Assembly: GCF_014066305.1 (NCBI RefSeq)
Contig: NW_023501044.1
Location: 62,001-126,000, forward strand
Length of the DNA: 64,000 nt
Direction of reading: 5' to 3'
From: Letharia columbiana
Lineage: Eukaryota; Ascomycota; Lecanoromycetes; Lecanorales; Parmeliaceae
This document shows positions 33,703 to 59,407 of the stretch, in pieces (the first letter of the stretch is position 1; the number at the start of each line of letters is the position of its first letter). Made by a program: the position numbers and the translations under genes. The notes under the pieces were generated by a model that saw only the letters and a list, made by a program, of their open reading frames with translations, had not been told where the DNA came from and did not search any database.

Positions 33703-34690
33703 AGTGGGGAGCGGCAGAAATGTCTGCTGAGATGAGGAAGGAATGGATGTGTTCTATTTGCAGAAGCTGTCAGCGAACCCTTGATGTTGACTTGCCATTG
33801 AATTAGCTTCTCTTCCTACTTCATACGCACCACAACGCTAAGTTACCATGCTTGCTACTTCAACTGAAACCCACCGCTGTAAGGCGATGTTGTGGGTAAA
33901 TCTGTCTGTGGTTCCTTTTTCAGATTGTGCATCCACAACCAAGCTTGAAGTACTAGACTAGAGTCTCTTAGCATCAAGATCAAGCCAGTAGATTCAAGTC
34001 ATATGTATGGCTAGTCTTACCTGATAAAAGTTAGAGAGGTGGGAACCCCGATCAAGCTTAGAGCTACCTATGCTGGAATGCGCGGCTTTGCCCACTTGAG
34101 TTGGAGCCGGACCGGAGAAAAGGTTTATTAACAGGTACACGTTGAAAAGAAGCAGCTATAAGAGGCATACGATGGGATCTGTCTTGAAGACATGCGGGTA
34201 TATGCATGTTCGTTGAAGGACGTTTTTGTGCTGCATGAACTGGTCCCACTGCCATAAGGCGTCAGTAGCGCCTTGGCACCAAAATAGGGGGCTGAGCTCC
34301 TAAGGAAGAAGGAAGACCTCGTGGTGGGACCCATACTTTCCGTTTACAGAGGCTATTTCGCACACTTTTCAATAATGATAATTCCTCGAGTGCTCAGCTT
34401 CACCATTGATCATTAGTTTAGTGTTGGTTTCGAATTGCAACGCAAGGCAATCAGTCCAACCGCTCTTGGAGTACATGCCACCCCAGCCTGCTGGAGTTTA
34501 TCATCGTGATGTTATGCCGGGCAGCGGAAAACTCCGAGCTTCCCTCATTGTGCTCTAGCACTAACTGATGCACGAATCAACACCTCCTCATCCCTATCTT
34601 GTGGTCCGCACGATCACCAAAACTTTCGCACAACGCTCATGCTATATTATTGAGCTATAGAAAGTAGATATACGTATTCAAAACACTCAG
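33703..34690. other. 5' flank of F-box gene up to the AT-rich block
   Basis: GC-balanced. Short minus frames at 34.06-34.33 kb have no family features. The change to TA-rich sequence occurs near 34.67-34.75 kb. Confidence 0.5.
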
Positions 34691-34729
34691 TAAGGCCAGT
34701 ACCTCTTCAATTAACTTTAGGGGACGTCT

Positions 34730-37700
34730 ATACTCCTATAATTATACTAAATAAAATTAGCTAGTCCTAATAAGATTATAGTAATTACGATTTTAAGAAG
34801 CACGTATTTATATTAAAGTTATCGATAAATATTATATTAAAAATAATAGATAAAGACTAGAAACTATTAATAAATAAAGTAGTTACTATCTTTAAAACGA
34901 TAATAATATTTATAAAAAGAGTAAATAATAAATTTAAAATCTAGATAATTTTAAATAAAATATATAAACTAGCTATTAATTTAAGTAATCGAGATAATAA
35001 TATAGAGAAAAAGATTATATATATTAAGTATTAGATAGTTAGTCTAAGAAGTAATATATTAATAATTAGCTATATTAGCGTACTAAGCTAATTCTTAATA
35101 TTCTTCTCTACTATTAAAGAAATTTCTATTATATTATTAATAATATTAAAATAAGATTAAGTATTATATAATAAGCTAAATAAGATTATTATAAAGTTAT
35201 AAGATAAGATAATAAATAAAGTATTAAAGAGAAAGATATCGAGCGAGATAATTATAATAATTAATAAATATATAAAAAGTATAAATATTATAAGAAAATC
35301 TATTAAAACGACTAGAAGACTAATAAGTAATAATATATATATTATAATTATAAATAAGAAGAAGATAAATAAATTAAGAAAAAGTAAAGATTAAACTTTA
35401 AAGATAAGTAATAGTATAAGAGTAATTATTAAAATATATAATCTTCTACTTTATAAAGTAAGAATTAATATATTTAATATTAAAGATATAACTATAATAA
35501 TTAAAAGAGTTTAAAATAAGAATATTAATATACTAAGTCTTAATATAATATAACTAAACTAATTTAACGCGAATAAAAAGAGTTATAATAAGAGTTTATT
35601 GATTATTAAATTAATATCTCTAGAGAAAGAAAATAGAGTATTAAAAGAAGATCTAGTTATCGATTTAAAATTATATAACTATTATATCTATAATAAATAG
35701 TATAAATTAAAGTAATACTTCGTATACTGAAAATATAATTATCTATTAATTATATATCTTAAAAAGAATTACTTAATATACGGGAAATGCTTAGAGAAGT
35801 ATTATTATAAAGAATATATAGTCGATACTTATAAATACTCGATTTGCGAGAGACTATATAAGACTTAAAATAAGATATATATAATAAAGAAGAGAGAGAT
35901 AGTAAGAATAAGAATGGCGAGATAATAGACTCTTTTACGATTTATAATAATAAAGAAAGTATCGACTAGCTATTAAATAAGCGATTAATTAAGTAATTAC
36001 TTTTAGAATATATTTAATTATAAGCGAAATAAGAATTTTTTTTAAGGCTAGTATTTATATATAATAGACTAGTAGATAGAGATAGAATAGTTAATAGAAG
36101 AGAAATTAGAGAGCTAAATCTTAAAAGAACTACTATATTAAATCTTTAATTAAATAAAAGAAGATATACTTCTATATTATTAATAAGAATCTCGCTTAGA
36201 AATAGATTATTCTCTAAAGTAATAGATAAAGCTAAATAATATAAAAACGATATAGCGATAAGAGAAATTAATAATTTTAAGAATAATAGATAGTCTCTAA
36301 GTTAAAAGAGTAGTAATAAGAGAATTACGATCTTCGTTAATAGGAATAAAAAGAGATATATTCGATTTATCGATAATTAAGAAAAGGAGAATACTTAAAA
36401 AGAAGATATAAACTTTATAAACTAGGCGAAGCGAGTAAGTAATATTAATAATAATATTAAGAAATAGTAATATATTCTAATTAGCTATTAATATTATAAT
36501 ATAATATAAGAAAATTTAAAATAATTATAATAGAACTCTTCGATAATAAAAAGATTTATAATATTAATATAGTAGTAATTTAGAAGCTTTAAAGAAATAT
36601 TAATATAAATATATTATATTATTCTCTAAAGAATAGATTTAACTTAATCTATCTTTATTATAATAATATATAAATATATTTCTATATTAATAAGAGAATA
36701 TTATTAAAGTAATAATATTTATTATATTATTTATTAAACCTCTATACTCTTAATATTAAGTTTAAAAATAATAGAATTATATATATATATAATATTTATA
36801 ACCTCGATAATTAATAAATAGATGAACTTAACGAACTATATAAGACGCTTATAAAGTTTAAAAATAATAAATAAATTATATTAGACGACTTTAATCTTTA
36901 CTATACGATATAAGAGAAATTAAATACTTATATTAATAAGAGAGTAGAAGAATTAATACTTATAACGAAAGAATTTATTATAAAATAAGTATTACTAATA
37001 GAAATAATAATATATAAAGAAAACTATTAAATAATAATAGATCTACTATTTATTATTCTAGTATTAATAATAAATATTATTAATTATAATATCGAAAATA
37101 ATTTAAAAAGTAAATTTAATTATCTTTTAATTTTTATAAAGCTTAAGCTAGTCGTAATAGAGTTAATATTAATAATATACTAAAACTTTAATAAACTAGA
37201 TATCGAGATTCTAAGAGAGATACTCGCTAGAGCTATAATATCGAAAGAGTATTTAATTAATTCTCTAAAAAATAATAGAAATCTTATTAACGATGATATC
37301 GATTATTAAATAGCGACTATTATTAACTCTATTTAAACTACTATAAAGAAATCTACTTTAATTATTAGATTATCGCTATAATCTAGATTAGAATTTATAT
37401 TAAAATATAAGAAAGTATAAAAGTATTATAAATCGCTAAAAAAAAGTTAAAGAATAATGCTTTTAAAGAAAGTATAGAATAAGTATAAAGTCGCTAAGAA
37501 CTTTAAAAATAATCTAATTAAGAGAATTATTAGAAAGGCGTTTAGAGAGTTTATAATAGAGATATATAAGTTATTATAAATAATATAGAAAAAGATTAAG
37601 TAAGTTAGAAAATAACTTATAATATAGATATATCTTTCTTCGCTATTTAATAAAGATAAATAAGAATATAATAAATTAAACTCGAAGGTAGATCTTCTTA

Positions 37701-38078
37701 TAAGAACGTTCTTTTTATTATCGATATAGATAAAGTTAGATAATATTAATATTAATATAATATATCTATAAATCTATTTAATAAATATAATTATTATAAA
37801 TAAGATAAGAAAGATTATAATATAAGTATTATTAAAGAGAGTCTCGAGGGAAAACGCGATCTTTAATCTAATTCTTAAGAAGATTTTAAAGTCGTTATTT
37901 TTTTATCTATATAGAATATTTAATATATATATAATAAACGGCTATTATTTAAAGCACTTTAGAATATTAATAATAATTATTCTTTTAAAGTTAAATAAAA
38001 ACTACTCGATTTCTAAAGAATATTAATTAATAGCTTTACTTAATACTATAGAAAAGATAATAAAGTTTATTCTTTACT
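34730..38078 (+). mobile_element. RIP-degraded Tad-like LINE, truncated in reverse transcriptase
   Basis: Non-LTR retrotransposon read through RIP stops. At about 35.69-35.93 kb the frame gives a worn zinc-knuckle region ending KREIVRIRMAR, as in Tad-type ORF1. At 36.54-37.15 kb is an apurinic-type endonuclease: a stretch ending YINKRI, and at 36879-36914 LDDFNLYYTI-stop-E, which restores to the family's GDFNLHHxxWE with only C-to-T and G-to-A changes. At about 37.98-38.07 kb the start of the reverse transcriptase appears (ISKEY-stop-LIALLNTIEKI, family motif YRPIALLNT). Similarity stops abruptly at about 38078, where a GC-richer sequence begins. The 3' rest of the LINE was not found in the window. 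Confidence 0.7.
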
Positions 38079-38640
38079 TAACCTGGATTCGGGTAAAAAG
38101 GTCGCCATTTTCGGCATACTTAAACGCCGTTTTAAGCACCTTTTGCACCAGGGTCCCCTATTTAAGCGCTACGCTGCCTGAACGTCTAATACACTCTCTT
38201 ACTCTCCCTTTCAATCTCTTAACGGCTGTATATAGGCTTGCGTACTAGTAATCGTATCGAGTTAAGTCGTTTCTATATCTCCTTAATCATCTTTATTACT
38301 TTATCATAGGTCGCTTATAAAATTCTTAATACGTGAGATATAGAGGTGAGGAGGGAAAGAGGGAGAAGAGGGAGAGAGAAAGAGGATACTGGGACCCTCG
38401 GCCGTTTCAGGTGACCATAAAAATAGCCCTACTCCTTCCTTCTATCTTTCTCTCTACGTTCCTCTCTATTCAACTTACTTTCCTCTATTTATTTCTATTC
38501 TTAAGAACTTATATCTCCTTCTTTTATATATAGATAAGCCTTCTTACTATTATTCGCTATAGCTTATTATAAAATATTATTATATACTTAACGATAAGAT
38601 ATAAACTTATCTTACTCCTCTATCTTTATGAGAAATTAGC
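38074..38640 (+). mobile_element. Left end of a Starship-like element and captain leader
   Basis: The LINE reading frame breaks here, at TTTACTTAACCTGGATTCGG. The first 400 bp or so are far less RIP-mutated than either side. They contain a hairpin CTTAAA-CGCCGT-TTTAAG near 38124-38141 and a purine tract at about 38340-38392. The distance to the captain-like gene (about 0.55 kb, reading inward) is as in Starships, where the captain is the first gene at the 5' end. The exact terminus and target duplication were not established. Confidence 0.5.
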
Positions 38641-41460
38641 TTTTAGCTCGAGAATACTATAATATACGATATAAGAAGGTTAATAAATACTATCGATTAA
38701 CGACTCTTTATATTAATATCATTAACTCTTATATTAATTATCTCGAAGATTTATAAAGAGAGTAAGTTATCTCTAATATAGAATTTATAATTATTTTATT
38801 TAGATTATTAATTCTTAATCTCTAGATATTACGATATTATCGATATTAATTTCTATTACACTCTAAAATAATTAATAAAAAATTAAATTAAGAATTTCTT
38901 TTATTAAATATATAATTATTACTCTATTAAGAAAATTAGTTTAATTAAAATTTATTAGTATTAACTAAGTTAACTCTATATTAAATAAAAGAATTAATAA
39001 ATTAATTTATTAATCTTAAAGTAAATTTATAATATAAATCGAGATATATAGATTAATGTTTCTATATATATAAGTAATATTAAAATAATTTATTAACGAT
39101 TTATTAATAAAAGAATATAGATTAGATAATAGCGAAATTAATAAGTCTCTCTTAAATACGATTAATTTTATAGAGTTACTACGTTACTATTAAGTAATAA
39201 ATATTAATATCTTCTCTTATAAACGATAATGAGTTTAGCTAATAACGATTCTACTAATCGCGATATTTACTAAATCTTAATTTAAAGCTCTTCTCGAAAT
39301 TATTTATCGCGATTTAGGTTTATTTATCTAGCGCGATAAGATTATCGAAGAAATAGCGCTTATCTTATAATTAAAGTTTATTTAAATTAAGTCTTATAAG
39401 AAGTATAAGAAATTATAAGTAATTATTAAGAAATTCGAGTTTATTAATCTAATAGATATATAGAAAAATCTATATATTCTTTATCGATACTAATTCTCTC
39501 TTTTATATTATATCTTATATTATCGATCTTATCTACGACGATAACGCTTATCTTTTTTTAAATATAAATTCTAAGATAATTCTAACTCTTAACATTTTAA
39601 AGAAATTAAACTATTAATTAATTTTATAAAAAGAGAATATATTAAATATATCGTTATTTTATATATTTATATAATTCTTTAGAAGTTATATTATCGCGGC
39701 TAATATCGCGCTTTTCTATAATAAGTATTACGAGTAAATTAAATAATTAAAAGAAGAGACTAGCTTCGTATAGATCTTTATAATTTATTATCTTCGATAA
39801 ATAATAAAAAATATTATTAATAGTAAGTTCGAAGGTTTTTAATTTTACGGAGTTTAGATTAATATAATTATTTATTAGATAATTTTAATTTTAATAAGAT
39901 CGTTTATAATCTAATTATAAATTATATTAATTTAGCTATCTTTTAGCGTAACTATCTATCTTATATAATTTAATATAATATCTAAATTATATATAGAGAT
40001 ATAGCGTCTTAAATAAGATTAATTTAAGCAGCTAATTAAATAAATTAATAGATTAACTCTCAATAATCTAAAGAGCTAATTAAGGCGTAAAATATAAGTA
40101 TTCGCTAGAAGAAAGATATTTAGAAGCTTCGCGATCGTCGAGATAAACTATTCTAACGTATTTATTATTAATTTATATTTATCTATTATATAGAGAAATA
40201 AGCTATTTATAATTAATATAAGAAAATTAAATAAATTATAAATCGAAAGATTAAAGCGCGAAAGTAAAAACTTATAAAGTAGATCTAAAAAGAATATAAT
40301 ATTATCGTTTTTATATAAGATATATAAGCGTAATTTAAGAAAGATATAAAGTTATTTAATTCTATTCTTTATATCTTAAAACGCGTTTAATACGCGTTTA
40401 TAGAACGATTATATATCGTTAAGATCTTCTTTAACTCGCTATTAACTCGTAGTATTAAAAGCGATATAGATTAATATATCTTTATTATCGATAATATAAT
40501 ATCGCTCTATATTCGATAGAAGAAAGTATTTCGTAAAGTTTATTAAATATAAAGAAGTTAGACGAGAGAAAATAGTCTTAATAATATAGAACGTTTTTTA
40601 AACGCCGTTAAGTTCGAGTCTAAGTCAAACTTTTTAATCTTTTATCTCTTTTCTATAAGATATAAATTCTATTAATATCTTTACTATCTCGATAATATCG
40701 ATCTATCTTTAAAGAAGCGACTTTATAATCTTAATAATAAATATTTATTATAGCGATATTTCGACCGCCGTCACCCTTTTCGACCCCGCGAACTCTATTC
40801 TTTCTCTTATCTTAAATATACGATAGTTATACTTAATAATATAATATATTTTAAGAATTATATAGCGACCGTTTATAGAGTCTATATATCTAATAAAATT
40901 AGTATATCTTATAAAGTTTTAGACTAATTATTATTTATCTAGTCTTATAAATTTATTATATCTATTAGAGTAATTATTCTATATTTTTTTTATCTCGATA
41001 CTTTAATAACTTAAAAAGCTCTAGCGCTAAGAAAGTAAGAATATCTTATTCTTTTCTAGATTTATCTTTATAAGACTATATTCTAAGATAGTATATTAAC
41101 TCGAAGAATATATATTCTTCGAGAGTATACTTTCTATTATATATTATTATATTATCTAGAATAATAAGATAATACTAAAGTTTTAAATATATTAAACTTT
41201 CTAATATTATATATTCTAATTCTATAATAATATTTAAATTTATATTTAAATTATATAGCCTTCGATTTTATAAACGTTTTAAATATACTTACTTTTAAAG
41301 TTTATATAATCTTTAAATTATTATACTATCTTAGAGTGTATAGACTTCTAGAGATAAATATATTAAATTCGAGGATATTCTTACTCTCTTAATACTAGAA
41401 TCGAAGCGTAAGAAAGGAGATTAAAAGTGGAACTTTGTTTTAAGAGGAGGGTTTTAAAAA
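38640..41460 (+). pseudogene. RIP-degraded DUF3435 tyrosine recombinase (Starship captain-like)
   Basis: No open frame survives, but one can be followed through TAA/TAG/TGA codons. At 39224-39241 the reading R-stop-stop-V-stop-L (CGA TAA TGA GTT TAG CTA) restores to RQRVQL by C-to-T changes only. It sits in the DUF3435 context 'xVFPHERQRVQLALxLLLxAxTxxRP'. Upstream is NINIFSYK; downstream ALLEIIYRDLGLF. Further on, at about 39.9-40.1 kb, RNYLSYII and SQTRLI-type segments fit the family's 'YLxRHIxADTQAxYR' and 'LIRAA' region. DUF3435 proteins are the tyrosine recombinases that mobilise Starships and related Crypton-like elements. Catalytic residues could not all be placed. The alternative is a small captain-only element rather than a Starship. 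Confidence 0.6.
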
Positions 41461-42558
41461 TGAAACTCGAGGGACGATTTAAAAATGAAGTATAGAAGTG
41501 CGAGGAAGATAAGATAAAGTAATTTAAAAGTGGAGTAGGAAGTTTAGAGATATACTAATACTCGTCTTTAATATATTCTCTCGTCTATTCTCTACTAAGA
41601 ATATTGTTAACTTAATAGAAAAGATAGAAAATATCTTACGTAGTAAAAGCAAAAGCAAAAGCATAGTAGTTTACTAGAAGAAAATTAAATTTAATAAAAA
41701 AAGTAGATTAGCTAGCGCGATTATCTTACGTAGACGTTATATTAATTATTCGTAGAAATAAAAGCTATTATACTTATCGATTAACTAATTATAAATAATA
41801 GTCTTTTAATATAATAGAGATTATATATATAAATTCGATATATCGACCTTTAAGCTAACTTAAGCTTAGAAAGCCTTATACTCATTATCTATTAATCTAC
41901 TATTTAAAGACTTTAATTATATTATTTATAAGATTTTATATAACTTAAACTTAAAGAATTTATCGAATAAGAAATTTAATTTAATTAAGACTTCGAAAGA
42001 TATATAAGTTTAAGAAATTTAATATTATATCGTATATATTTAATAATATAAATAATACTATACGATAGCGACGTTAAGGAAGCCGAGATATAATATTAAT
42101 ATCTACTCTCTTAATAGGGGTATCCTCGAAGTAAGCTGATTGTTAAAAATTCTTTTTAACCGGCTAGTTGCGCTTAATAATATATTAAAGGTTCTATTGC
42201 ACTTTGATATATCTATTCTATAGTTGAGTGGGGGAAGAAGTAGTAAAGAGTAGAAGTAGGATGGATAGAAGTAGAAAGATGGGGAAAAGAAGTGGGCATG
42301 CATTCGAGCCCGAAGAAAAACGGCTCCTATTTTAACCGTCGGTTACATGAAAATTCCAATATATAAATAGTAGGAGGATGAAGCTAGCACTGGCAGAGAC
42401 AGTCCTATGAAGCGCAGTGAAAGGCTGCATCGCGGAAAGCAAGATAGTAAAAGCCGGGACCGTGAATGCCAGAGGGCGGGGTTGCCAGAATGGAGCGGGT
42501 TGCTAGAACGTGCTAGAACTAGCTCTCTCGATCTATTTAATTTTGGATACTGATACAA
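41461..42558. other. Downstream of captain relic, mixed composition
   Basis: RIP-type sequence to about 42.1 kb, then GC-balanced DNA. A purine-rich tract lies at about 42231-42297, similar in style to the one near 38.34 kb. Two short minus frames (42103-42303 and 42343-42576) show no family features. Confidence 0.4.
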
Positions 42559-42559
42559 G

Positions 42560-42729
42560 TACCCTCGCCCAGACAAAAATAAACTGCACTCAGGGCCCGC
42601 TACAAATTACTCTAATTGACTGGTTATATAAATTCCTAACCAAAATTAAAAGCGTATATTGAACCGTTGAAGATTTATTCAACGTCAGAATTGCGCCCGT
42701 CTGCAGTTTATTTTCGTCTGGGCGAGGTA
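42560..42729. mobile_element. MITE with TA flanks, about 170 bp
   Basis: Imperfect terminal inverted repeat of about 28 bp: left CCCTCGCCCAGACAAAAATA, right the inverse of CCTCGCCCAGACGAAAATAA (one extra C and a few substitutions). TA occurs at both outer edges (42560-42561 and 42728-42729), as in Tc1/mariner-type MITEs. An inner hairpin CGTTGAA-GATTTA-TTCAACG lies near 42665. It ends 182 bp before the NLR start codon and is not RIP-mutated. Confidence 0.75.
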
Positions 42730-42911
42730 CCTTCATCTGGTCAAGCGTGAGCTAATTATTCGGCTTGGCAAGGAAGCCCCGCGCTAAAAGTAATTCAAGG
42801 TAGCACCGTGTAGATCTAGCCCGTGTGGTAGAGCGAGGCCGCCCAAGGCTAAGGGTTGACCACTTCTTCATAACTCCAATACCCAGTCTTTGATTGAGGA
42901 GACTTGCGAAC

Positions 42912-45900
42912 ATGGCTGACCTTCATAGACCGTTCCGGTTGCTTTCCCTAGGTATATAGAGTTATGACTCATTTTTCTAACGAAAGCGCTGACGATGCCC
43001 AGATGGAGGAGGAATTTAGGGTCTCTCGACCCTCTATATGTTAAGAAGCATTATGGCCGTCTTAAGCCAAAAGGCTAGACTTAGCCTTGATTCGCCACTT
43101 TATTTTTACGATTATTTCGATCTTATTGCTAATATATCTATAGGCGGGTTAGTAAGAGATATACTATATCGTAAATTATATTAATAATTATAGTTTAATC
43201 GCTATTATACTTAAAATACTTTAGATAAATATCTAGATATATATTAATAAGTATTTAAAATTAACTTCTAAGATATTCTTCGTTAAAGGTCTTATAGAGA
43301 AGAGAGTAAAGTTGAATAATTTCTTAAAGTAGTACGTAGTCGATAACGTTTTAAAGCCGAGTCTTTAAATTTAACTATTAAGAGATTAGTAAAGAAGTAT
43401 CTAAGAAAAAGAAGTATAAAGGGCGAGAAGATTCTCTTTAGATTTAAGGCTTTTAAGCTTAAAGAGGATTAGTCTTATAATATATAAGTTAAACTCTTTA
43501 TCTCTATACTATTTTAGTTAATTAATTAATAATAGATTTATATATGTAATATCTGAAAAACTGGGAAAACCTTTTCGATTTCGAAGCTATAATAGCCTAT
43601 GAAATATTCTCGATAACTATTCGATCTAATAAGTATATCGAGCGACTTCCGCTATATTTACCTTCTTTTCTTCTATAGAAATTAACAATTCTTCGATAGT
43701 ATACGTTGACGAAGGTATAGGTTATAACAATTCGATAAGAGCGTTAATTGAAGAGACTTCGTATATATAGCTATTAGATAGGATTAATTATATCGTTAGC
43801 ATTAAGACTAGAATTCTAATCTCTAGAAATGTTAATAGAACTATTAAACTACTCTTCGATAAGCTTATAGAGATGACTATAGATATCGAGAAACTTATTA
43901 GAAAATTCGAGGAAGAGATAAAATATAGATATAATATTAAATAAAAGATATATTTTCGCTTTAATATATAGTATAACCTCGAGTAAGTTAAATTAAAAGA
44001 GTAAAGAGAATTAAATAGAATTAAAGTAATAACTTAAGATTATCTAAAGAGTTATTAAAGTAGGATAGAAGTATACTTATTATAGATCTTCGATCTAAAA
44101 AGTACGTAAGACGTTTCGTATTAGAGTCTTATATAAGAAGATAATTTTCTTAAAGTAATACTAATCCGTAATCTCTATTATAGCTTCTACTCTTCTTACT
44201 AGTAATGAGAATATAAAGATAAATAATTATAATAGTAAGTGTGATAAAGAATCTTTTATAAATAGATCTTGCTGAGATAGTATATCAGCTATAATAAAGG
44301 AGATTAAATATTTACGATTACTATAGTCTAGTAAAATCGATTATAAATCTTAGAAGAATTAAAATCTAATACGTGTATCTAGTATCTATCTGTGAACTCT
44401 TTAGAACTCGAAGTATATTAAATAGCGCGATAATGATATAAAGAAGCTACTCTAAATTTCTACTAATTCTAGCTATAGAAAGTTTGTTCTTACTAGATAT
44501 ATTATTAATAAAGACTTTCTTAAAGCCTTTTAGAATAATTTATTAAAACGCGTTCTTTATTACTTCTTTAAGAATATTAGCTCTAATTAATAAAGCGTAA
44601 TTTAAGTAATATCTACGATCTTATATTAACTATTTGCGTCTTAATCTTATTTAATTTAATACGCTTTATCTAGCTATCGTGAAACTGATAAAACGCTTTT
44701 TATAATATTTCTTAAACTCTAATTAATCTTTATAGTAGCTGCTATAGATCTATTAACTAAAAATATAATTTATATACTTAATACCCTTAATAAATATAAC
44801 GAATAAAAATATTCGGAGTTGATTAAAGTTCTTGAAGACTTCTATCTCTATTAACGATCTTTATTCGTATCGAATTTTAAGCTTCTTATTACTAGTCGAC
44901 TATATTTTCTAATTAGATATAAATTTAATAAATTACTTTAAGCCTTCGATAATATTAAGCTAGTAGATAACGATAAATTAGTAAGTATAAAGATAGAGAT
45001 TAATCTTGTTATTAAAGATAAGATTATAAAACTTACGTTAGAAAATCGTCTTACTTAGAGAGTTTCAAATTATTTAGAGAAGAGACTTCTAGAGATAGAA
45101 AATAGAATATATCTATAACTTCGACTTATATAGGAAATTATTAAGAAGAATCTATTAGATATTATTTAAGAGATAAATAAGCTTATTAATAATTTATCGT
45201 CTAGTATATAAGATTTCTATAAGATACTACTTTAAAGATATCTCGATTATCTATTTACGAAAAAGGTATTATAAATCGTCTTAATAACTGGTTAACTCTT
45301 AACTTTAGATGAGATTAATCTTACTTTTAAAGTAAATAAGTAGATCTTATCATATATTAATCTGAAATTAAAGAAATCCTCTCGACTATAAGAGATACTT
45401 TTAAGTCGCTATAATTTTATAGTCTTAATTATCGAATTAAAAGTTTACTTTATTTATTAAATAGTTAAGAAGTTTTTACTTAGTAAGATTAATATTAAAT
45501 CTTCGACTAAAAGAATCTAATAATAATCTCTAGATCTAGAGGAATCTTATTATCTTATAATAGAGATCTATTTATAGTCTATTTTCTTTTTAGAAGTTTA
45601 ATTAAATTAAGCGAACTTATATAACACTTTACTATCTAAGAATTATCGAGAGATAAAATTAAATATATACTATTAAAGCTATAAGTTCTTATTATATAGC
45701 GTAATCTATTAGATAGAGTATTTTAATTATTAAAAAAACAGTAATGATATAAAAACTATTAAATATTGCCTGGAAACTAGCGACTATCGTTTAGTTATTG
45801 ATCGATGGAGAATAAATTACGATACTATATTACACGCTATATTACTTAAAGGCCACGAGAAGATCGTATAGATGTTGCTCGATAAAGGAGCTGATATCAA

Positions 45901-46147
45901 CGCGTAAGGTGGAGAGTATAGCAACGCACTGCAGGCGGCGTCAGAAAGAGGTTATAAGAAAGTGGTGACGATGCTGCTCGACAAAGGAGCTGATATCAAC
46001 GCGTAAGGTGGATACTATGGCAACGCATTGCAGGCAGCGTCATATGGGGGTCATGAGAAAGTGGTGACGATGCTGCTCGACAAAGGAGCTGATGTCAGCA
46101 TCGTGCCTTATCCGGTTCCAGCACCAGATCCTGCTCCGTGTTCTTGA
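42912..46147 (+). pseudogene. RIP-inactivated patatin-NACHT-ankyrin NLR
   Basis: Exon 1 (42912-42951) gives MADLHRPFRLLSL. After a 51-bp intron (42952-43002) the frame gives DGGGI-stop-GLSTLYMLRSIM, the oxyanion loop of patatin-like phospholipases. The nucleophile motif follows at 43119-43151 (DLIANISIGGL, restoring to the family GTSTGG by C-to-T/G-to-A changes). The P-loop at 44468-44482 reads SSYRKF where GCGKS is expected, each change being G-to-A or C-to-T. At 44762-44803 NIIYILNTLNKYNE matches the NLR 'ILDALDEC' Walker B. Near 45.28 kb an ITG-stop-LLTLDEI segment fits the post-NACHT 'ARPLTLxE'. The P-loop and the ankyrin repeats are in one frame. Three 33-residue repeats close the gene (stop 46145-46147). 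Fungal NLRs act in non-self recognition. This copy is dead. Confidence 0.78.
45868..46108 (+). repeat. Near-identical 99-bp ankyrin repeats with matching RIP stops
   Basis: Units start at about 45860, 45959 and 46058. The core MLLDKGADINA is nearly the same in each. A TAA stands at 45905-45907 and again at 46004-46006, at the same place in successive units, where CAA (Gln) is expected. Otherwise this segment has normal GC. Confidence 0.8.
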
Positions 46148-47170
46148 AAACCAATACGTTATTCAAAATGACATTCAACTCGGTCAATTGGTGGATGCAG
46201 CTTGGCGGATTTTCATTGTATCTCTTCTCTTGATCCCCAATGTTTGACTGAACCTAAGCAAGCTTGTCCGGCCGCGGCGGTTGTTGATTATATGCTTGGT
46301 ATGGTTGCAAAAGTAATGTTTCGTCGAAGGGATCAGTGCTGCTAATCGCATGGATCGCTGATCTGGAATGGGACTCAGGGGAGAATCTTTAGAATGCCTA
46401 GAGGTTGAGTTGTACCATGCTCTAGGGGATCGCGCGGTCCTGCGTTCGCCAGGCACCATCTATTGGGAGAATGTCACAAGTGGGCGGCTCAGTTCCGATG
46501 CCTGAATCTCTGGTTGGGAGTCTCCACTGCGCAAAGACTCTTGGCATCGCAGCAAATGCCAAGCCACTACATCCTGTTCGTCGACTTCTCCCCACTTCAC
46601 TTGGGCTGCTACTATCTGGGAGATTGAAGATTTTGCTTAGCCGCTTTGTTCGACTTGGAAGCTTTGCTGATCACACCAAGAGGATTTTAAAGCTTATTTC
46701 TATCTCTATCCAATCGCACTTTAATTCTGGTGGGCTTGACAATCCCTTTGGCCAGCGAGCTCTACGATCACCTGCGCGAGCTGAGCCTGCCATCAATATT
46801 GGGGCTGATCCCGATGGCGGGCCGCGAAAGGCCAGATCGCAGCCCGTCCCGACCCCGTCATCAGTACGAACACATCCACATCCACGACCGAGCCCACCTC
46901 GGGGATAGTATCAGTGAGTTCGTCCTAGAGATTTCAAAGAGCGTGGTAATTATATTCGAGACCTAATTAATCCGCTGATAGATCCCTCAATACAGCTGCC
47001 ATACGAATATTGTCTGGCAGAAGCAGTCAGTGTTACGCCCGTCACCTACCAGCGCAAAAGTGACGTCGTATGGATTTTTATTTATTCTTCATATCTGTAT
47101 GCAGCCGAAGGCTATGACAAGGTCTGCGCGAGTTGGAGAGGGACCTACGTAGCTGGCAGCCAGAAAAGGA
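46148..47170. other. GC-balanced island after the NLR, no gene assigned
   Basis: Overlapping frames on both strands (minus 46184-46459, plus 46471-46908) lack family features. A plus frame near 46.86 kb reads HIHIHDRAHLGDSIS, loosely like sequences in fungal NLR-associated proteins, but this is too little to call. TGTTACGCCCGTCACC at 47031 resembles an LTR start but no partner was found. Confidence 0.35.
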
Positions 47171-47219
47171 GCCAGCAAAGAAGCCAGCAAAGAAGCCAGT
47201 AAAGAAGCCGGCAAAAGAA
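47171..47219 (+). repeat. 12-bp tandem repeat, four units
   Basis: GCCAGCAAAGAA repeated with small changes. In frame it would give KKPAKKPVKKPAKEP. It lies just before the next TA-rich block. Confidence 0.85.
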
Positions 47220-47249
47220 CCACAGCTTTTAGAATTCATTGAAATCATA

Positions 47250-50200
47250 GATTTTTCTATCCCTATTATCGTTCGAAGGTTAGACTTTAGAATTAACGCC
47301 ATCTATATTGCTAAACTTAATAGTCATTTAAGATATATAATAAGAGATCTTAGAAAGTAATTAGATTCTAAGAAGTATACGATTATATAAGAAAATAGTA
47401 AGTATTAGAGTATATATATGAATTTCGATATTAAAATAAAGTAGTATTAAGAATACGAATTATCTAAGCTAGAGAAGCGATTTTATAGTTTAAAATATAT
47501 TTTAAAAGAATTAATAGTAGAAATAGAGTCTAATTATATCGAATTTTAAATCTTAATATTAGATATAATCTCGACGCGAAATAAGAGCTTTAAGTCTAGA
47601 GATATCTAAAATTAAGATTTATTTCTAATATTATTAGAAGAGTTTATTTTCGATAAGTCAATCGAAGTAGAGAATATAAATAAGATAAATTTAAGTTTAA
47701 ATATAGTAGGCTTAGAGAATAGTATTATATCTTATAAACTTTATTCGATATAATAAAACGCTTAATTAATATTATTAATTCGTTATATAAATAATATAAT
47801 ATTATTATATTCGCTAGTACGTAATAGTAGATATTCTCTTCTTAAACTTATAGATTCTTATTTATCTTTTATTAAAAGTATATAATATAAGATTTAGAAT
47901 TCTCGGTCTTAACTCTCGAAATTAATAGAAGTAGAATCTTAATTAAGACTATTTAGTTAAAAAATAATCTTATACTATAGTAACTTAAGTAATTTATTTA
48001 TATTAATATAATTAGAGGTTAATAATAGAGTTCGATTTATATTAATCTTAATGCTAAATATTATATTATAAATTAATAATATATATCGCTAAGTCTCTTT
48101 ATAATAAGCTCTATAAGAAGACGTAGATATTTCTAGAGATAGCTAGAAAGAGAAAATTAATAAATTTATAAAATAGAATTAGAGATTAGAAGTAGTAATT
48201 AAACGAGTAAAGTTAGAAGGGGAAAGTAGAAAGTAAATATTACTATTCTAAAGATGATGTGATATAAACCTTCGCTTAAGAATTAATATTAGACTATCTA
48301 ATCACTCGACTACTTAATCTAAAATCTCAAAAAATACGCGAGGATATTTCGCTTCATGCGAAATCTACTACTATTAGAGATAATATTTCTTATAATTAAG
48401 AGCGATAACTATATCTAAATCTAGCTTTCTCTTCTTTTTATTATAATTAATATTAACTATTAATAATTCGTCGATAAAAGCGTAATTTAAGATATATAAT
48501 AGCGATATTCTCTCGATTATTACGGGAGTAGTTTAAGGTATAGCGCTAATTTTTATATTTTTTATAAACTCTTAAGGAAATCCTAGTTAAAATATTTAAG
48601 TCGTTATTAATAAATTCTTATTTCTCTAATATAAATAAATACTTTATAACGTAGTTATCTCGCGATGTAATTATTCGAAAGAAGAAGAGATATTCGCATT
48701 TAAGTTAATTAATTTCGAAATATTATCGATATCCTCGATATTATAAAAAAAAGAAGATTCTAATAATAGACTTTTAGATTTCTAATATTACGTTAGTATT
48801 ACTTTATATATATATAAAATATAGAGATAAGCGTATAATCTAAGGCGCTAATAGCTAGATTATTATATTATTAAATCTATATTTATAATACTTATTATCT
48901 AGAATAATTATTAAGATAATATTAGTTTTATATAGAATATATAATATATAAGCCTTCTTAATCGTCTCTCGAGCTCTCTTATATAATTTCTTCTTTCTTC
49001 GCCTCGCTTTATTATTAATAGTTATATTCTCTTAATTTTAATAAATAAATAATCGTTTAGCGGAGATTATCGATAGTATAAATATACTAATTTAGCGAAC
49101 TTTTATAAATCTCGACGATTTTATTATAGCGTTATATATAATAAGATAAGAGTATAAAGAGAATAGTATTATAAGTAGCTATATTAAATAGCTTAGCTTA
49201 TTTTAGAAATTATATTTAAATTAAGAATTTAGAATAGATCTTTAGTCTATTTTAGAGTATATAGTCTTTTAAAATCGATAGATAGTAGCGATAGCTTATT
49301 TATTATTAAAGTCTTTCTACTTTATTAATTAATGAAATTAGAATAGATGCTAGAGAGTAGAATAAAAGCGAATATTTAAGTTATAAATAAGTGTTCGAGT
49401 TAGAAGTAAATATATCGTAAGAGTAATAATTAAACGATAGTATAAACGTTAAAGATTAATTAAAAATGAATTATTCTAAATAAATGTATTTTCTTAAAGA
49501 TATACTTAGAGTCTAAACTATATAGACTTAATTTACAACTTCTTTCTATAAGTTAAAGATAACGATATTTATTAGTATATCGTAATTATATTTATACTTA
49601 GATCGCTACGCTCGAATCTTAACCTTAACGTAAGTAAAGAGTTAAGATCTATAAGAGAATATCGATAGACGAATTATCTCCGACGAAAATGGCGTATTAC
49701 TTAAGATAAGAAAATTCGAAAAGAGAAGAAGCTTCGCTATCGAAATTAGGCGAAGCGATATAAATCGCTTAACGAACTATTTGTCTTAAACTTGGAACTC
49801 TTAAAAGTATAAGATATAAAAGAATATATATTAAAGGTGTAGAGAATATTATTAGAAAAGCTCGCGATAGAAGAGAATCGCTTAAGGAGATTAATAGAGA
49901 TTTTAAGCTAATCGATTATAGACTTTAACGAACGAGTTAAAGAGATATAAGAGATAATATAATCGATATAATATTAAGAACGTTAATTAAGCTTCGATTA
50001 TAAGAGTAAAGTATAAGAAGAGGAAGATTATAGATATCGTGAAAGACTTTTCGAATAGATGAGTAATTTAGATCTTTAAGTATAACGCTGCGAGATCGTA
50101 GATTCTACGTTATCTTCTCTTAAAGGCTTTATATAAGTCTAATATTTAAAGCGGTGGGGTTAAACGGGCCGACGTATTATAGCACTCTAGATATTAGCTA

Positions 50201-50850
50201 GAGAGCTATTTCTTTAACGCTATAAATGAGATATTTTACTCGATTACTCGAGAAATATATATAGCGAGTTATAGACCCGATATATAGTATTAATAATAGT
50301 AGATATATTTAAAAGATAAATTATAGTAAAGAATATTGAAGAAATATAAATGAAACGTTCGCGATCTATATAATTTACTTCTTTTATATATAATCTTTCT
50401 TAGAGATATTATTATTAATAGCTCTTTTTTTTATATTTCTCTTTATTAATCTAGCGTTATCTTCTAATTTAAAAGTAGATATAGCGAGATATTAGTTAAT
50501 ATAAATTCTTTCTATAAGAAATATAAGAATAATATATAAGCTATAAGCTATAGTAGCTTTAAAGTATTCGATAGAATATAATAATTAGAGAGCTATATCG
50601 AGGAGATATCGTCTCTTACTTACGTACTTATTTACTATAAGCTTTATTAAAGAGAAAAGATAGAGATTAAAAGAATATTCTTCTATTAAAACTTAATTAT
50701 CTCTATCGCGATAGATGAACTTAAATTGTTTTTAAGCGAGTTCGTTCTTTTCTATAGCTTCTATATATACTAAAGCTATTATCTAAAGAGAAGTTTTTTT
50801 AGATAAAGTTTATTTCTCGAGTAAGTCTTCTTTAAGCGGGATCTCGTCTA
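47250..50850. other. RIP-mutated block, content not identified
   Basis: TA-rich and CpA/TpG-poor. On the plus strand about 49.61-50.06 kb, a frame containing only Gln/Trp-type stops gives basic coiled-coil-like text (KEKKLRYRN, then AKRYKSLNELFVLNLELL; IEENRLRRLIEI). It once encoded protein, but the family is unknown. Confidence 0.5.
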
Positions 50851-53200
50851 AATAATAACTTAACGAAATTATAGAAGGCGCTATAGAACCTTACTCTTCC
50901 TCGCCGTTATCCGTTATCGACTCATTTATATCGTTTATTAATTAAGATTCTTAATCTTCTCTAATACTTTATAAATAAAGTAGACTATTAAATAGATAGT
51001 TTATATCTCTTAGTTATTTTATATAATTTTGCCATTCGCTTATATCGCCTAAGTTAAAGTCTTTTTACTTCTTATTAATCTTCGCTTACCTCTAATCTTA
51101 ATTCTTATACGTTTCTTTCGCGTTTAATTACTCTTAAAGTATATATCCTTAATCTATATATTTTAGCGTCGATTCTCGATCTTACTCTTAATTATTATTT
51201 TCTCTTTTCTAATTATTTATTTCGGGTTTCGAATAGGTTAATAACAATCGATTCGATAAAGAAGTTATTAACCGATATAATTCTTTTACTAAAGAGTTCG
51301 AAATAGTAGATTCGCTATTATAATTACTAAATACTCTTCTATTAAAATAAGTTAGATATATAAACTTTCTAACGAAAACGAGCTAAATATTACTCTCTTA
51401 ACTTCTATCTATACTATATATATTATCGAGGAAAAGAAACTTTCTACTCTTCTCATAAGCTAGATTATATGAATATATATATCTTCTCTTTAAGTACTCT
51501 TTAGATTCATCGATTATAAAAGTAGGTTTTCGTAATTTAGTCTATAATCGTTTATTTATATAATTGAAATATTTCGCCTTTAACTCGCTAATCTTCGTCG
51601 ATTCGAATTCTAGTCGCTTCGCTAAGTCGGCGAGTTTATATAATACGAATTTATTAAAGTTCTTAGTCGTTTAAATTATTCTCTCCGCCGGCTTAGGCTT
51701 TATCTTTATAAATTTTAATAATAGCTTACGGAGATATTATATAACGTAGAGAAATACTTATCGATAGTATAGAGCTACGCGGTTTTACGTGTTATAAAAT
51801 CTATAAGTAAAGATTAATTCCGCTTTCTAGATAATACATTTATCTCTTTTTTAAGTTATCTCGAAGAAGCTATATACTATCGCCGTATATAATATTCTTC
51901 TAAAAAACATCGTTATTAAGCTCTTTACGCGATTAGCGTATACTTCGATATACTTAAAATTTTCGAAGAAAGTTTAAAGAGTAGAGATGAGATTCTCTTA
52001 TATCTATAGTCTCGTCTAGATCTTTATACGACGGTTTATATTAAACGCGTTAAATATTTCCCTCGTTTTTAGCTAACGAAATAGAGTTATAGTATCGAAT
52101 ATCGATCTACTCGATACTTTAAGTTTTAACGCCTTTACGATAATGCGATTTATCTTCTATATATCGCGCTTATTATATCGAAATAAACCCGTCTAGAATA
52201 CTTTTACGTAGTTAAGATAGTAAAATATCTTCTATCGCTTAATAATTAATAAGCTTGAAAGGTATATAAAAGATAACCTATCTCGTCGTATTTTAAATTT
52301 ATTATATTTTTCGTTACGCTTAGCCGTATCTCGTTCGACTATAGACTCGAAATATCTAATAATATATTAAAGGTTGCTATAAAGTCGTTTCTTCGTAGTA
52401 ATCTCTTTATTTCATATCGCTTATTCTTAATTAAGTATATTTATTATCGAGTCGCCGCGAGTAACTTAAGATAGTGTTGATAGATCTTATAATATATTTT
52501 ATCGTCGCTAGATATTCTCTCGTTAGATAGTTACTCGATTAAGGAGATTCTTAGATTATCGCTTAAATCTAAGAGCGTTAGTAAGAGATATTCTACTTAG
52601 TCGAGATCGAGCTAGTTATATTAGCTAGATATAAATCTATAGTTTATTAAAGCTAAGAAGAAATTATCTCCCTTCTCGCGTAAATCTAATATTGATTATA
52701 TAAATATTTAAGTTGAAAGTCTAAAGGAAATCGTAGTTCTAACGTTTTAGTCTACGTATTGCCGAGTAATAGGTCGAAAGCGATTCTTAAAGAATAAAGA
52801 GCGAGGTCTAATTACTCTCTATCGATTACGATAAATATATAATATCGACTATCTCGGTGAAAGTAGTCTTTCACTTCGAAAATTAACACTAAATTCTTCA
52901 CGATAGATTTATTAAGTATTTTAGATTCGTTCTTTAAGAAAGTAAAGTACTTAAGTCTAATTCGTGCCGAGTCTTTATACTTAATACGCTTCTCTTATTT
53001 AAAAGTTTCTTTCTAATTCTATACTAAAGTACGCTATATTATAAGAGTATCGTTAAATAGTTAGTATTATAATTTTTATCTATAGAAGAGAAGCGTTAGC
53101 GTTAAGAGATTATTAATAATACTCTATAAGTAGAGCTAGCTAGAATAAAATTAAATAGAATCTAAAAAATAGATAGATTGTCGCGATTAACGATCTAGGA
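50850..53200 (-). pseudogene. RIP-degraded DUF3723 gene
   Basis: The frame is followed through stops on the minus strand. At 52712-52664 LKYLYNQY-stop-IYARREI restores to the DUF3723 hallmark LKCLHGQHRI(x)AAREI by C-to-T/G-to-A changes, followed by TIDLYLANI (family WWTVDLYLxxL). At about 51445-51405 KFLFLDNIYSIDRS, then VFVRKFIYL, fits the family's 'FLFLDxxH...TSFFVRRSVYFAFFG'. Between them YYKIYQHYLKLLAATR and KRYEIKRLLRRND are well kept. DUF3723 is one of the accessory genes repeatedly found in Starships; its function is unknown. The ends are approximate, and the C-terminus may extend below 50.85 kb. Confidence 0.62.
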
Positions 53201-53695
53201 TATTAGAAGTAAATATTATCTTAATCGTTAAATAGTACTTTTCTATACTTTAAATAGAATACTACGTTCTTCGATCTTTTATTCTATTTCGATTTTTATC
53301 TATATCCTTCCCTACGTACTTTTTATTCTTATCTTTCTTCTTTTTAATTATTCTTCGTTTAGTAATTATTAATGAGACTCTATTATATAATATCTTAAAT
53401 AGCTTTTCTCTTCGATAAGCGATTTATAATAATTCGCTACCTAAATTCTAGAGTTAATTTACTATCTTTAAAGGATATATCGTCTATTAATGATAACCGC
53501 TTAATTTCTAGAAATATCTAAGATTCGTTAATCTCTAAGAATAAGATTACTGCTAACTCGAGAAGGAAAAAAAGATACTCCGATATAGAAGGCAATGAAC
53601 GTTTTGATAAGTCTTTAGACGAAAAACGTTTAGCTTCTACGAGACCTAGCGTCGAGTACGATATTCGAAAGGTCGAGTCATCTCCTCGAAATGAC

Positions 53696-54487
53696 CTATA
53701 TCCTTCCAGCGAATGTACTTCTATCGGAGTAACGGCTAGAAAGGAGGGCGCTACTGGCAAGCTGAGAGAGAGAAGACACTCCGACGCTGATCTCCGTGAG
53801 GCCCGCATTTGGTGGATTCAAGTCTCGCTGTAGGCCTGCTTCGAAATGGTGGAATGCAGTCATAAGGCCGTCTTTCTGAACCCAGTTAAGGCCTTTGGTG
53901 ATTCGCATGACGTCTTGAATGTAGGCCGTAGCATCTTTCTTTTCGGCCGCATCCTTTCTCGTATACTGACATGCCTCCAATTGAGTCATTAGCTCGGAAT
54001 GAGTGGGGCTAAATCGTTCAATGAGCGCGGTGCACCATGGTTTAATTGAAAGATTCAAGTTGTAAACGCCTTTGGTGTTATCCAGTACTTCGTATTGGTA
54101 CCAGTTGAAGGCCGTCAATTTCAACACTGAGACCAAATTTGTCTGCACCAATTTGACTCCTTTTTGCGACGCCGTGCTTCTCAGTCGATCAGTGAAGGCA
54201 TATACATCACCGGTGCCGTCAAAGTAGCCTACTTCCTTAGGCCTCCATCGCTTATCTGCCTCGGGCGGAATGGTCTCAGGCTGGGGAGCTGTTTGCGGAG
54301 TTGGTGTAGGCGATCTGGATCTCGCTTCTAATGCTTCCATTCGTACGTTCATAGCATTCATCATTGCCGTCATCTGTGTATTCATTTGTGCCATTTGTGT
54401 TGAGAGTGCTGAGATTGCAGTGTTATCAGGCTGAGGAGGAGGAGCGGTTTGCTGAAGGCTCGTCTGGCCTCTCGTGTTTCCAGCCAT
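53696..54487 (-). pseudogene. LTR-retrotransposon gag fragment, 263 codons
   Basis: An open frame starting at an ATG near the likely LTR. Residues 20-60 hold a short Met/Gln-rich coil (MAQMNTQMTAMMNAMNVRME) followed by a Pro-rich linker. Residues about 80-225 match the retrotransposon gag fold of Ty3/Gypsy-type elements (KEVGYFDGTGDVYAFTDRL; KLTAFNWYQYEVLDN). It becomes RIP-mutated at its 3' end near 53.69 kb. No zinc knuckle, protease, reverse transcriptase or integrase follows; instead the DUF3723 relic begins within 0.5 kb. So it is a 5' remnant, with LTR and gag only. Confidence 0.65.
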
Positions 54488-54705
54488 GATGTATGGTGTA
54501 TCGACAGGCCTATCGAAAGGATCGATTTGGTAGACAGTGTGTCAAAAGGTACTCGATGACGCGAGTGTATGTGAGGACCGGCTTGGAACGTTGCACTATT
54601 AGGATTTGGTGCAGGCTTTGCATGTAACTGGTGGAATTCCACTGGATCTCTATCGTCTTGATAGTAACCGTAGTGTTGCTGCCATTTATCACGGAATATC
54701 AATGA

Positions 54706-54849
54706 TGTAAGTCATGAATATGGTATGTGGTAATAAATGTATATAGAAGGAAGAGTATCTACAGGAAGAATCCTCCTCATGAGGCCCCCAATGCCAAGGC
54801 GCGCTAGTGAATGGTATGTTCGGTATGTCCGGTGAAGGAATCCGTAACA
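54706..54849 (-). repeat. Probable 5' LTR of the gag element
   Basis: In minus orientation it begins TGTTACGGATTCC (end at 54849) and may end ...CTTACA near 54706. A TATATACATTTATTACC stretch inside could hold promoter or poly(A) signals. The second LTR was not found, so the borders rest on the TG...CA pattern only. Confidence 0.45.
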
Positions 54850-55142
54850 CTTAACTACACTATAAGATTATTTCTATTTAAGTGTCTTATTTATTAATAT
54901 CTATAAATCTCTAAAAGTTATACTATCTAGATAAACTAGCGAAAGGGAATATTATTTCTAATTAGAGTTTAAAGTTATTTATTAAGAATAAGAAATATCG
55001 TAAGAGCTTTCTATTTAATTAAATGTACTTTATAAGACTAACGTTAACGTTATTAAAATAAAATATTAGGGCCTAAGTAAGGCGCGAGATATAATTAAAT
55101 TACTATATATTTACTATAATATCGAACTCTATAGAGAGTATT

Positions 55143-55446
55143 TGTTACGGGGCAAGGTTCCCCTATATCAAAAGAGCGCCGAGCCCCCGCCAAGACGGGA
55201 ATTCGTATCTAAATCACCACATATCCGTAACAATTGCACACTTCGAAAAATGGCGCATGCCCTCATGCGCTAGCCCGAGGCGCATTCAATGTAGGGGCCC
55301 CCCAGGGTGGAACACCCCGTAAGCTACTTCAAAGCCTGGTGGTCACGGGGGGAGTCTGTCACGGGGCAAGGTTCCCCTACACCAAAAGAGCGCCGAGCCC
55401 CCGCCAAGACGGGAATTCGTACCTAAATCACCACATATCCGTAATA
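55143..55446 (+). mobile_element. TRIM-like miniature LTR element, 304 bp
   Basis: Two 90-bp direct repeats (55143-55232 and 55357-55446) differ at only a few C/T positions, mostly in CpA context. Each begins TGTYACGG and ends CCGTAAYA. The 124-bp spacer ends in a purine run GGGGGGAG just before the second repeat. A perfect 5-bp duplication GTATT lies on both sides (55138-55142 and 55447-55451), as expected for LTR retroelement integration. It codes for nothing; the plus frame across it is a chance frame. Surroundings (54.85-55.14 and 55.45-55.69 kb) are RIP-mutated, so it probably arrived later, or is too short to be a RIP target. Confidence 0.82.
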
Positions 55447-55703
55447 GTATTTAAGTTAGATAGACGGTAGTAAGATTTAGCTTAAAGATACTAATAGCGT
55501 TAATCTATATATAGATTCACTACTAAAGAGATTTAGTATAAGCTAGGATAAGGTTTATAAGTATAGAAATAAGGTTCGTTAGGCTAGAGATAACTAGAGT
55601 AAATTATTATTATAGACTAAGTAAAAGAGATTAGTTAAAATAGGCTCTAGAACTAAAGTAAAAAGATACTAAGAGAACTTATTTATTTAAGTTAATACAA
55701 GTT

Positions 55704-55765
55704 TAGGCCCATGAAAAAATTTCATGGTTTGTAGCCGAAAAAAACCGAAATCGCCTAAGGGCCTA
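55704..55765. repeat. Nested palindromes at Helitron 3' end
   Basis: Outer arms TAGGCCC (55704-55710) and GGGCCTA (55759-55765) enclose an inner perfect hairpin CCATGAAA/TTTCATGG with an AAA loop (55709-55727). Confidence 0.8.
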
Positions 55766-55978
55766 CTTCTTTTTATCGCATATTTAGTAGCAATGCGATA
55801 TTACCATAATGTAGGCCTCCCACGAATCTCAGTACAAATTGCTGGAGAGGCAATGCGATATACGATATGCCTGCCTTCTACATATGCTTCTACATGGCTA
55901 CATTCAATGGCCCCATGCACCCTGTTCATCGACCGCCTTGCCCGGGCATGCACCATGTGCATCCACCGCCCTACCTCC

Positions 55979-58900: not shown

Positions 58901-59165
58901 CTGAGTCCCAGCATGGAGGCACGGTACCGGTTTTGGTGGTGGCATAAACACTGCAGTTTCCATGGAGCATGCACCTGGTAACGGTCTCATAAAGATTCGG
59001 ATAAAGCGCTTGATCAGGGATCTCAGCACTGACAGCCGCATCTACTTCGGCAATGGACTTGAATCGATCCTCAGGTGTCAATATAATGAGGATGTGGGCA
59101 TGCGGTAGGCCTCTTTTTTGAAATTCAATGGTGTAACCATGGGCCGGAGCATACCCTGCGGGCAA
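55979..59165 (-). CDS. Helitron Rep-helicase (PIF1-like), partial, 983 codons
   Basis: Rolling-circle transposase/helicase. Two exons are inferred, 59165-57943 and 57707-55979. The 235-bp intron has an AAG|GTATGT donor, a TTGACTAAT branch point and a TATAG acceptor, and the 2952 nt join in frame. Near the N-end EFQKRGLPHAHILI carries the two histidines of Rep motif 2 (residues 22 and 24). The tyrosine motif KYIFKYVHKG lies near residues 160-168. The PIF1 helicase has Walker A GYGGTGKT near 528, Walker B ELIFWDEIS, GDFRQILPVV, and the end motifs INKSQGQSL and LYVALSRVTSKAGL. About the first half of the normal N-terminal domain is missing, and the displayed ATG at 59165 is only the first in frame. 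No nonsense codon follows, so the rest is recent or has been spared. Confidence 0.85.
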
Positions 59166-59407
59166 AAAAACACGTTAGGGCTAGGAATATATAGTATTTT
59201 AGGACTGCAACTAGAAACAATATCAATAGTGGTGTGTAACGAGGATTCAATTGATAGGGAGCAAATCTACATATAGTGGTGAAAGCTATTTGTGGGCCGC
59301 AGTGACTTTGCCAAGACACGCTAGGCCAAAATAGGTCGCTAAGCGTATGTTTACGACCATAGAAGCTGTCACACTCGTAACAGACTATTCTATAAAGATA
59401 ATTATCT

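What the first reader, a model, noticed from the sequence alone, without database searches (positions are those of the whole stretch)
38074..53200. RIP-silenced Starship-like giant transposon with captain, patatin-NLR and DUF3723
Reading through RIP stops reveals, in order, a DUF3435 tyrosine recombinase reading inward from a sharp junction, a patatin-NACHT-ankyrin NLR and a DUF3723 gene. Captain plus patatin/NLR plus DUF3723 is the known Starship gene set. No frame in this stretch is open over the diagnostic domains, so standard gene prediction would call it empty AT-rich DNA. Seen: the motifs and the junction. Known: the Starship association of these families. Inferred: that they belong to one element.
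Basis: partly seen in the sequence, partly recalled or inferred. Interest (0 to 1): 0.92.

Follow-up and report, generated by a model that had tools for sequence, protein, structure and literature searches.

The report
Dead 115-kb Starship giant transposon
A 115,000-base insert that splits one copy of a repeated, likely LINE-type element in a fungal genome begins with a recombinase gene full of RIP-type mutations, and it is most likely a Starship giant transposon that can no longer drive its own movement, leaving its predicted immune-receptor-like cargo genes stranded.

Summary
Read through its stops, the block contains a DUF3435 captain (E 1.4e-10), a patatin-NACHT-type-ankyrin gene and a DUF3723 gene (1.9e-32). 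The junction at 38074/38075 is a real element end.

The element is far larger than the finding. The repeat left of the junction resumes in register and in the same orientation 115 kb away, so the insert is contig C9:100075-215155, its right end outside the window. 39 of 39 other long matches of that repeat that were scored cross the insertion point unbroken. The unbroken site fits the published Janus/Phoenix Starship target core. The 3' terminus recurs, to the same base, at two places on contig C8; the 5' end recurs at two other places.

Against a lightly mutated captain copy, the window differs by 823 transitions and 61 transversions; 285 of 309 CpA sites are changed.

It is a RIP-damaged Starship, a new member of a known kind; RIP-degraded and nested Starships are already published. 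Not settled: the family by captain tree, the borders of two further internal captain loci, and why genes without a second copy are RIPped.

The parts
34620..38074 (+). Left half of the RIPped repeat (likely LINE-type) that is the insertion target; its right half resumes at contig C9:215156, outside the window
   Evidence: 87.4% identical over 3456 positions to an uninterrupted copy at C9:227387-223932; right pieces at C9:215156-215271, 216861-218557 and 219352-219645. Endonuclease-RT domain in the uninterrupted copy only at E 2.9e-4, under the curated cut-off
38075..64000 (+). Part of the Starship that lies in the window; the element is C9:100075-215155, about 115.1 kb
38073..38090 (+). 5' terminus and target junction; two-base exact overlap TT, or TTAC/TTAT if one T slip and one C/T difference are allowed
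38075..42197 (+). Conserved 5' module (leader plus captain), shared with C8:1232769-1236786 and C9:205580-201554 (minus)
   Evidence: 79-83% identity, transition-rich differences
38640..40902 (+). Captain: DUF3435 tyrosine recombinase relic, first gene, reading inward; approximate limits read by eye against the C8 copy
   Evidence: DUF3435 E 1.4e-10; lightly mutated relative at C8:1060334-1062759 scores 164.8 and 128.5 bits to DUF3435
43104..46140 (+). Patatin - NACHT-type (NPHP3_N) - DUF7069-like (E 0.0025, under cut-off) - ankyrin NLR relic; ankyrin part little RIPped; limits approximate
47194..49440 (.). RIPped segment duplicated, inverted, elsewhere in the same element (C9:144473-146607) and in part on C8:486675-487831
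   Evidence: 84-87% and 69% identity
51344..52569 (-). DUF3723 gene relic, in two frames
   Evidence: best E 1.9e-32
55982..59174 (-). Helitron-type Rep/PIF1 helicase frames, not RIPped, inside the Starship
   Evidence: PIF1 E 2.3e-74; Helitron_like_N 9.9e-6, 26.3 bits, under its cut-off of 28.9

Best explanation
The stretch is the 5' part of a 115-kb insert that splits a repeat copy and starts with a RIP-mutated DUF3435 recombinase gene, and it is most likely a Starship whose captain once inserted it there and has since been inactivated by RIP. Shown: two ends in one repeat copy, uninterrupted versions of the target, a captain as first gene reading inward, the DUF3723 and patatin-NACHT-ankyrin relics between the ends, and C-to-T/G-to-A damage focused on CpA. 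Inferred: the captain joined the element's circular ends to the target at a short TT/TTAC core; because the 5' module is present in several copies in this genome, RIP then recognised and destroyed it; cargo of normal GC (TPR and NB-ARC genes, a peroxidase; copy number not tested) escaped and is now stranded. Movement by a captain acting in trans is not excluded.
For: Split target in register; 39 of 39 other long matches of the repeat that were scored run through the site (75 candidates, 40 scored, the C9 reference copy among them, 35 not scored). Same 3' terminus at C8:482945 and C8:1012030. Same 5' terminus at C8:1232769 and C9:205580. Domains. RIP: 823 transitions to 61 transversions, 796 of 884 differences are C>T or G>A, CpA 285 of 309 changed against 80 of 290 at CpT, and 44 of 53 stops at Gln/Arg/Trp codons of the other copy. 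Target core and left end as published for Phoenix-family Starships. No N in the 2-kb bins across the element.
Against: The direct repeat is only 2 bases if no mismatch is allowed. Terminal inverted repeats are weak (32 of 1000 shuffles reach the score). The genome-wide DUF3435 search did not list this captain. No strain comparison was possible, so the empty site is a paralogous repeat copy and not the same locus. The two other 3' ends on C8 have no detected partner 5' end. Two more DUF3435 loci inside (C9:174 kb and 205.6 kb) mean the 115 kb may be partly composite.
Confidence: 0.93

Rival explanations
1. A small Crypton-like recombinase transposon of about 4.1 kb (38075-42197) inserted in the repeat, and everything else came in later by unrelated insertions.
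For: Similarity between the three 5'-module copies stops near 42.1-42.2 kb.
Against: The repeat does not resume at 42.2 kb but at C9:215156, next to a separate 1.2-kb 3' module that recurs elsewhere and ends on the same base each time. Published Starship filtering reports that captain units under 15 kb are indels of captain genes, never transposition of a full element (passage).
Confidence: 0.03
2. A composite: two or three Starships nested in one another, the outermost owning the two ends found here, with the inner ones contributing much of the length.
For: DUF3435 loci at C9:173980-175148 (+) and C9:205580-201554 (-), the latter with the same 5' end. Nested Starships with unidentified boundaries are suggested for Verticillium (passages).
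Against: A search with the 3' end found three places in the genome, none of them a second one on C9, though a heavily RIPped copy could be missed; no split target could be shown at the inner 5' end. This modifies the best explanation more than it opposes it.
Confidence: 0.45
3. Independent relics: captain, NLR and DUF3723 are unrelated RIPped repeats that accumulated in an AT-rich gene desert.
For: The region also holds Helitron frames and short repeats.
Against: Both ends of one insertion enclose all three. A related element's 3' end on C8 lies 23 kb from a patatin NLR. Among the longest repeat pairs listed none flanks the NLR or DUF3723 (list cut at about 70).
Confidence: 0.03

Closest known systems
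Starship elements, Phoenix family (Janus, Horizon, Thetis, Limos)
   Same: Captain first at the 5' end. Uninterrupted target ATTCTTACTAGAA fits the core A(N3)TTACTA(N2)A of the Janus target in PMC12153272 (passage); the left end carries TTTACT, as given for Thetis in PMC12257634 (passage). Size is within the published 20-700 kb.
   Different: Captain phylogeny not tested. The right end reads TTAT rather than TTAC. The end of the longer Janus motif (CT) reads CG here (by eye).
RIP-affected Starships (Gaeumannomyces type A; Fusarium Limos copy; Frontier)
   Same: RIP signatures; transition-dominated damage and captain hit in the Limos and Frontier cases (passages).
   Different: Here the damage is patchy: captain, NLR and DUF3723 are hit, while long cargo stretches keep about 45-50% GC. 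The Gaeumannomyces case is described as element-wide.
Starships with several YR genes in Verticillium (PMC12289983)
   Same: More than one captain-like gene within one region (passages).
   Different: There, the majority of transposable elements in Starship regions lack RIP signatures.
Cryptons
   Same: Tyrosine recombinase elements, only very distantly related to captains (passage).
   Different: This element is 115 kb, carries cargo, and its 3' end is far from the recombinase.

Membership tests
Starship superfamily | DUF3435 captain as first gene at the 5' end, reading inward | tested here: met
Starship superfamily | Both ends of one insertion defined against an empty site | tested here: met
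   paralogous empty sites in the same genome; same-locus empty site in another strain not available
Starship superfamily | Flanking direct repeat | tested here: inconclusive
   TT exact; TTAC/TTAT only with a slip. Published range in one species is 2-12 bp
Starship superfamily | Size over 15 kb with cargo | tested here: met
   115,081 bases; cargo
Starship superfamily | Accessory families (DUF3723, patatin-like, NLR, ferric reductase) | tested here: met
   DUF3723, NLR and patatin seen; ferric reductase did not appear among the frames scanned, 20 of 70 listed plus a few read-through stretches
Starship superfamily | Terminal inverted repeats (common, not universal) | tested here: inconclusive
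   32 of 1000 shuffles reach the score
Starship superfamily | Captain-dependent mobility | not testable with these tools
   needs living strains; the captain here is broken
Phoenix family of Starships | Target and direct repeat of TTAC type | tested here: inconclusive
   target core A(N3)TTACTA(N2)A present at the site and TTTACT at the left end, but the right end reads TTAT; 37 such cores on both strands of 256 kb of C9, 3 in the 6.8 kb around the uninterrupted repeat copy
Phoenix family of Starships | Captain in the Phoenix clade | not tested
   protein search timed out; no reference captains held
Crypton | Small element ending just after the recombinase gene | tested here: not met
   3' end at C9:215155, about 112 kb after the captain

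The most novel reading that the evidence does not exclude
RIP acted here as an engine-killer that spared cargo: it destroyed the captain and the accessory genes and permanently anchored a 115-kb, NLR-rich cargo in the genome. Because the NLR body and the DUF3723 gene are RIPped although the genome search found no second DNA copy of them, the element either once existed in more copies here or arrived already RIPped from another fungus.
Probability: 0.3. Interest if true: 0.62.

Novelty: new member of a known kind. Interest (0 to 1): 0.45.

Why it matters
The Starship finder Starfish starts from predicted captain genes and, according to published work, cannot identify fragmented Starships, rearranged insertion sites or insertions in lineage-specific regions (passages). 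Here a split repeat and read-through domains delimited a dead element inside a single genome. The same recipe could recover other dead Starships and show which cargo survives once the captain is lost.

Tried and rejected
A Crypton-only reading was tested and rejected. A low-stringency self-comparison gave only AT-rich noise and was replaced by stringent scoring. A genome search with the 3' end found no second one on C9. A search for a split repeat at the inner 5' end, C9:205580, gave only five short weak matches besides itself. The patatin profile alone failed, and the N-terminal patatin fragment of the C8 protein found nothing at the window motif. Terminal inverted repeats were inconclusive. 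The protein database search failed on time in 4 of 4 attempts, so neither the host species nor the captain clade is known. Not every frame was scanned by Pfam: 34.5-48.6 kb all three plus frames; 48.5-54 kb two of three plus frames and all three minus frames; 41.5-48.6 kb one of three minus frames; the minus strand of 38.1-41.5 kb not at all. For the rest of the element I scanned 20 of the 70 non-overlapping frames listed for C9:96001-219000 (12 of the 20 had no family at the limits used) and nine read-through translations of three stretches.

Full report
What was claimed and what is there. The window is contig C9:62001-126000 of a 52.2-Mb assembly without a name; that it is a fungus follows from the gene families and RIP. 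Stops were read as X. With that, the stretch gives DUF3435 (E 1.4e-10), NPHP3_N (1.1e-5), ankyrin (4.9e-17) and, on the other strand in two frames, DUF3723 (1.9e-32 and 4.8e-8) (first seen). The five other frames gave nothing better than E 0.089. The genome-wide DUF3435 search listed 11 matches but not this one, so the captain is visible only when its own frames are read. Patatin was not found by its profile (genome-wide 25 matches, none on C9). A gene at C8:503500-507300 with a patatin match (NB-ARC and TPR parts read by eye) was therefore used as query: its patatin part has its best hit in 256 kb of C9 at window 43546-44049 (38.9 bits; best of 200 shuffles 32.7). Its N-terminal fragment did not find the GxSxG-like motif at 43116.

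Ends. Left of the junction lies a RIPped repeat, window 34620-38074. An uninterrupted copy of it lies on the same contig at C9:227387-222130 (minus strand). Compared with that copy, the window's repeat breaks at C9:100074 and resumes, same orientation, at C9:215156-215271. It is then broken by a second small insert with 164-bp end repeats and continues at C9:216861-218557 and 219352-219645. The two breakpoints overlap by six bases in the repeat. The insert between them is C9:100075-215155, about 115.1 kb; the 2-kb bins across it hold no N. Of 75 candidate places for a 1-kb piece spanning the insertion point, 40 were scored. The list has 40 long matches, one of them the query's own place, and 39 of 39 others cross the point without a break; a 41st row is a 65-base match. 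The repeat is called likely LINE-type from one endonuclease-RT hit under its cut-off.

Junction letters. Target ATTC-TT-ACTAG; left ATTC-TT-TACTTAACC; right GACGTAGATTA-TT-ATTAG. This parses without any indel as a crossover at TT, leaving one C/T difference to the right of it. A TTAC duplication needs one extra T and one C/T difference. The uninterrupted site contains A(N3)TTACTA(N2)A, the core of the target given for the Phoenix-family Janus elements (PMC12153272, passages seen). Direct repeats TTTAC, TTTACT and ATTAC are given for Phoenix-family elements in PMC12257634 (passages). The core occurs 37 times on both strands of 256 kb of C9, so it is supportive, not proof.

Recurrence of the ends. 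A 640-base query from the 5' end matches at C9:205580 (minus) and C8:1232769 (plus), both from query base 5. A lightly mutated captain copy lies at C8:1060334-1062759. The last 1.2 kb match at C8:484170-482945 (minus) and C8:1010795-1012030 (plus), both ending on the base that corresponds to C9:215155, and all three are followed by ATTATT. Independent recurrence of each end is what a Starship family would show. Against this, the C8 3' ends have no detected 5' partner.

RIP. Against the C8:1060 captain copy the window has 823 transitions and 61 transversions; 796 of 884 differences are C>T or G>A in the direction from that copy to the window. CpA is changed at 285 of 309 sites, CpC 230 of 315, CpG 199 of 344, CpT 80 of 290, and the reverse change (T>C or A>G) at 27 of 1136. 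Of 53 in-frame stops, 44 sit at Gln, Arg or Trp codons of the other copy, 6 at its own stops and 3 elsewhere. [quoted passage not shown] A motif recalled as the first catalytic arginine of tyrosine recombinases is lost in the window copy (by eye).

Cargo. Beyond the window the element holds a 999-aa TPR frame, a gene with NB-ARC and TPR in one frame, and a peroxidase domain (E 3.2e-30); in the window it holds a Helitron-type helicase with PIF1 (E 2.3e-74). Of the 20 frames scanned had no family. The copy number of this cargo was not tested, except that the last 9 kb of the element contain a stretch with a 70%-identical copy on C24. Two more DUF3435 loci lie inside, at C9:173980-175148 and C9:205580-201554. 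Multi-captain regions with unidentified boundaries are published for Verticillium (PMC12289983, passages), so this is not new in kind.

Open points. The NLR body (43.1-45.8 kb) and the DUF3723 gene are heavily RIPped, yet the genome search with window 42000-54000, which scored 39 of 40 candidates, shows no second DNA copy of either beyond ankyrin-repeat matches and short stretches. Leakage from neighbouring duplicated segments, lost copies, or arrival in the RIPped state could explain this; none was tested.

Known or new. RIP-affected Starships are in print: Gaeumannomyces (PMC11905480 and PMC12134995, passages), and Limos in Fusarium and Frontier (PMC12257634, passages). Accessory gene sets with NLR, patatin and DUF3723 are in print too (PMC12506042, passage). 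A search for Starship, captain, RIP and fossil together found no paper; that is one narrow search. I rate this a new member of a known kind. Its main value is the clean delimitation of a dead element from one genome.

Noticed in passing
contig C9:173980-175148 (+) and C9:205580-201554 (-), right of the window: Two further DUF3435 captain loci inside the same 115-kb insert; the second shares the 5' end of ours, in opposite orientation. Possibly nested Starships with unresolved borders.
   Followed up: partly
window 43100-45800 and 51344-52569: Heavily RIPped genes for which the genome search found no second DNA copy: RIP without a partner.
   Followed up: partly
window 55982-59174: Helitron-type Rep/PIF1 frames, GC-normal, inside the Starship.
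   Followed up: no
window 53699-54541 (-): Open 281-aa frame that looks gag-like by eye; no Pfam family.
   Followed up: no
contig C9:215272-216860: Insert of about 1.6 kb with 164-bp direct end repeats in the right half of the split repeat, with a short target duplication.
   Followed up: no
contig C9:221420-228004: The uninterrupted repeat copy is flanked by 443-bp inverted arms, 89.6% identical, unusual for a LINE.
   Followed up: no
contig C8:482945-507000: Likely relative of the element: same 3' end, a shared internal segment, and a patatin NLR-like gene about 23 kb from that end.
   Followed up: partly
window 18100-25600: Second very AT-rich block (about 20% GC), not studied.
   Followed up: no
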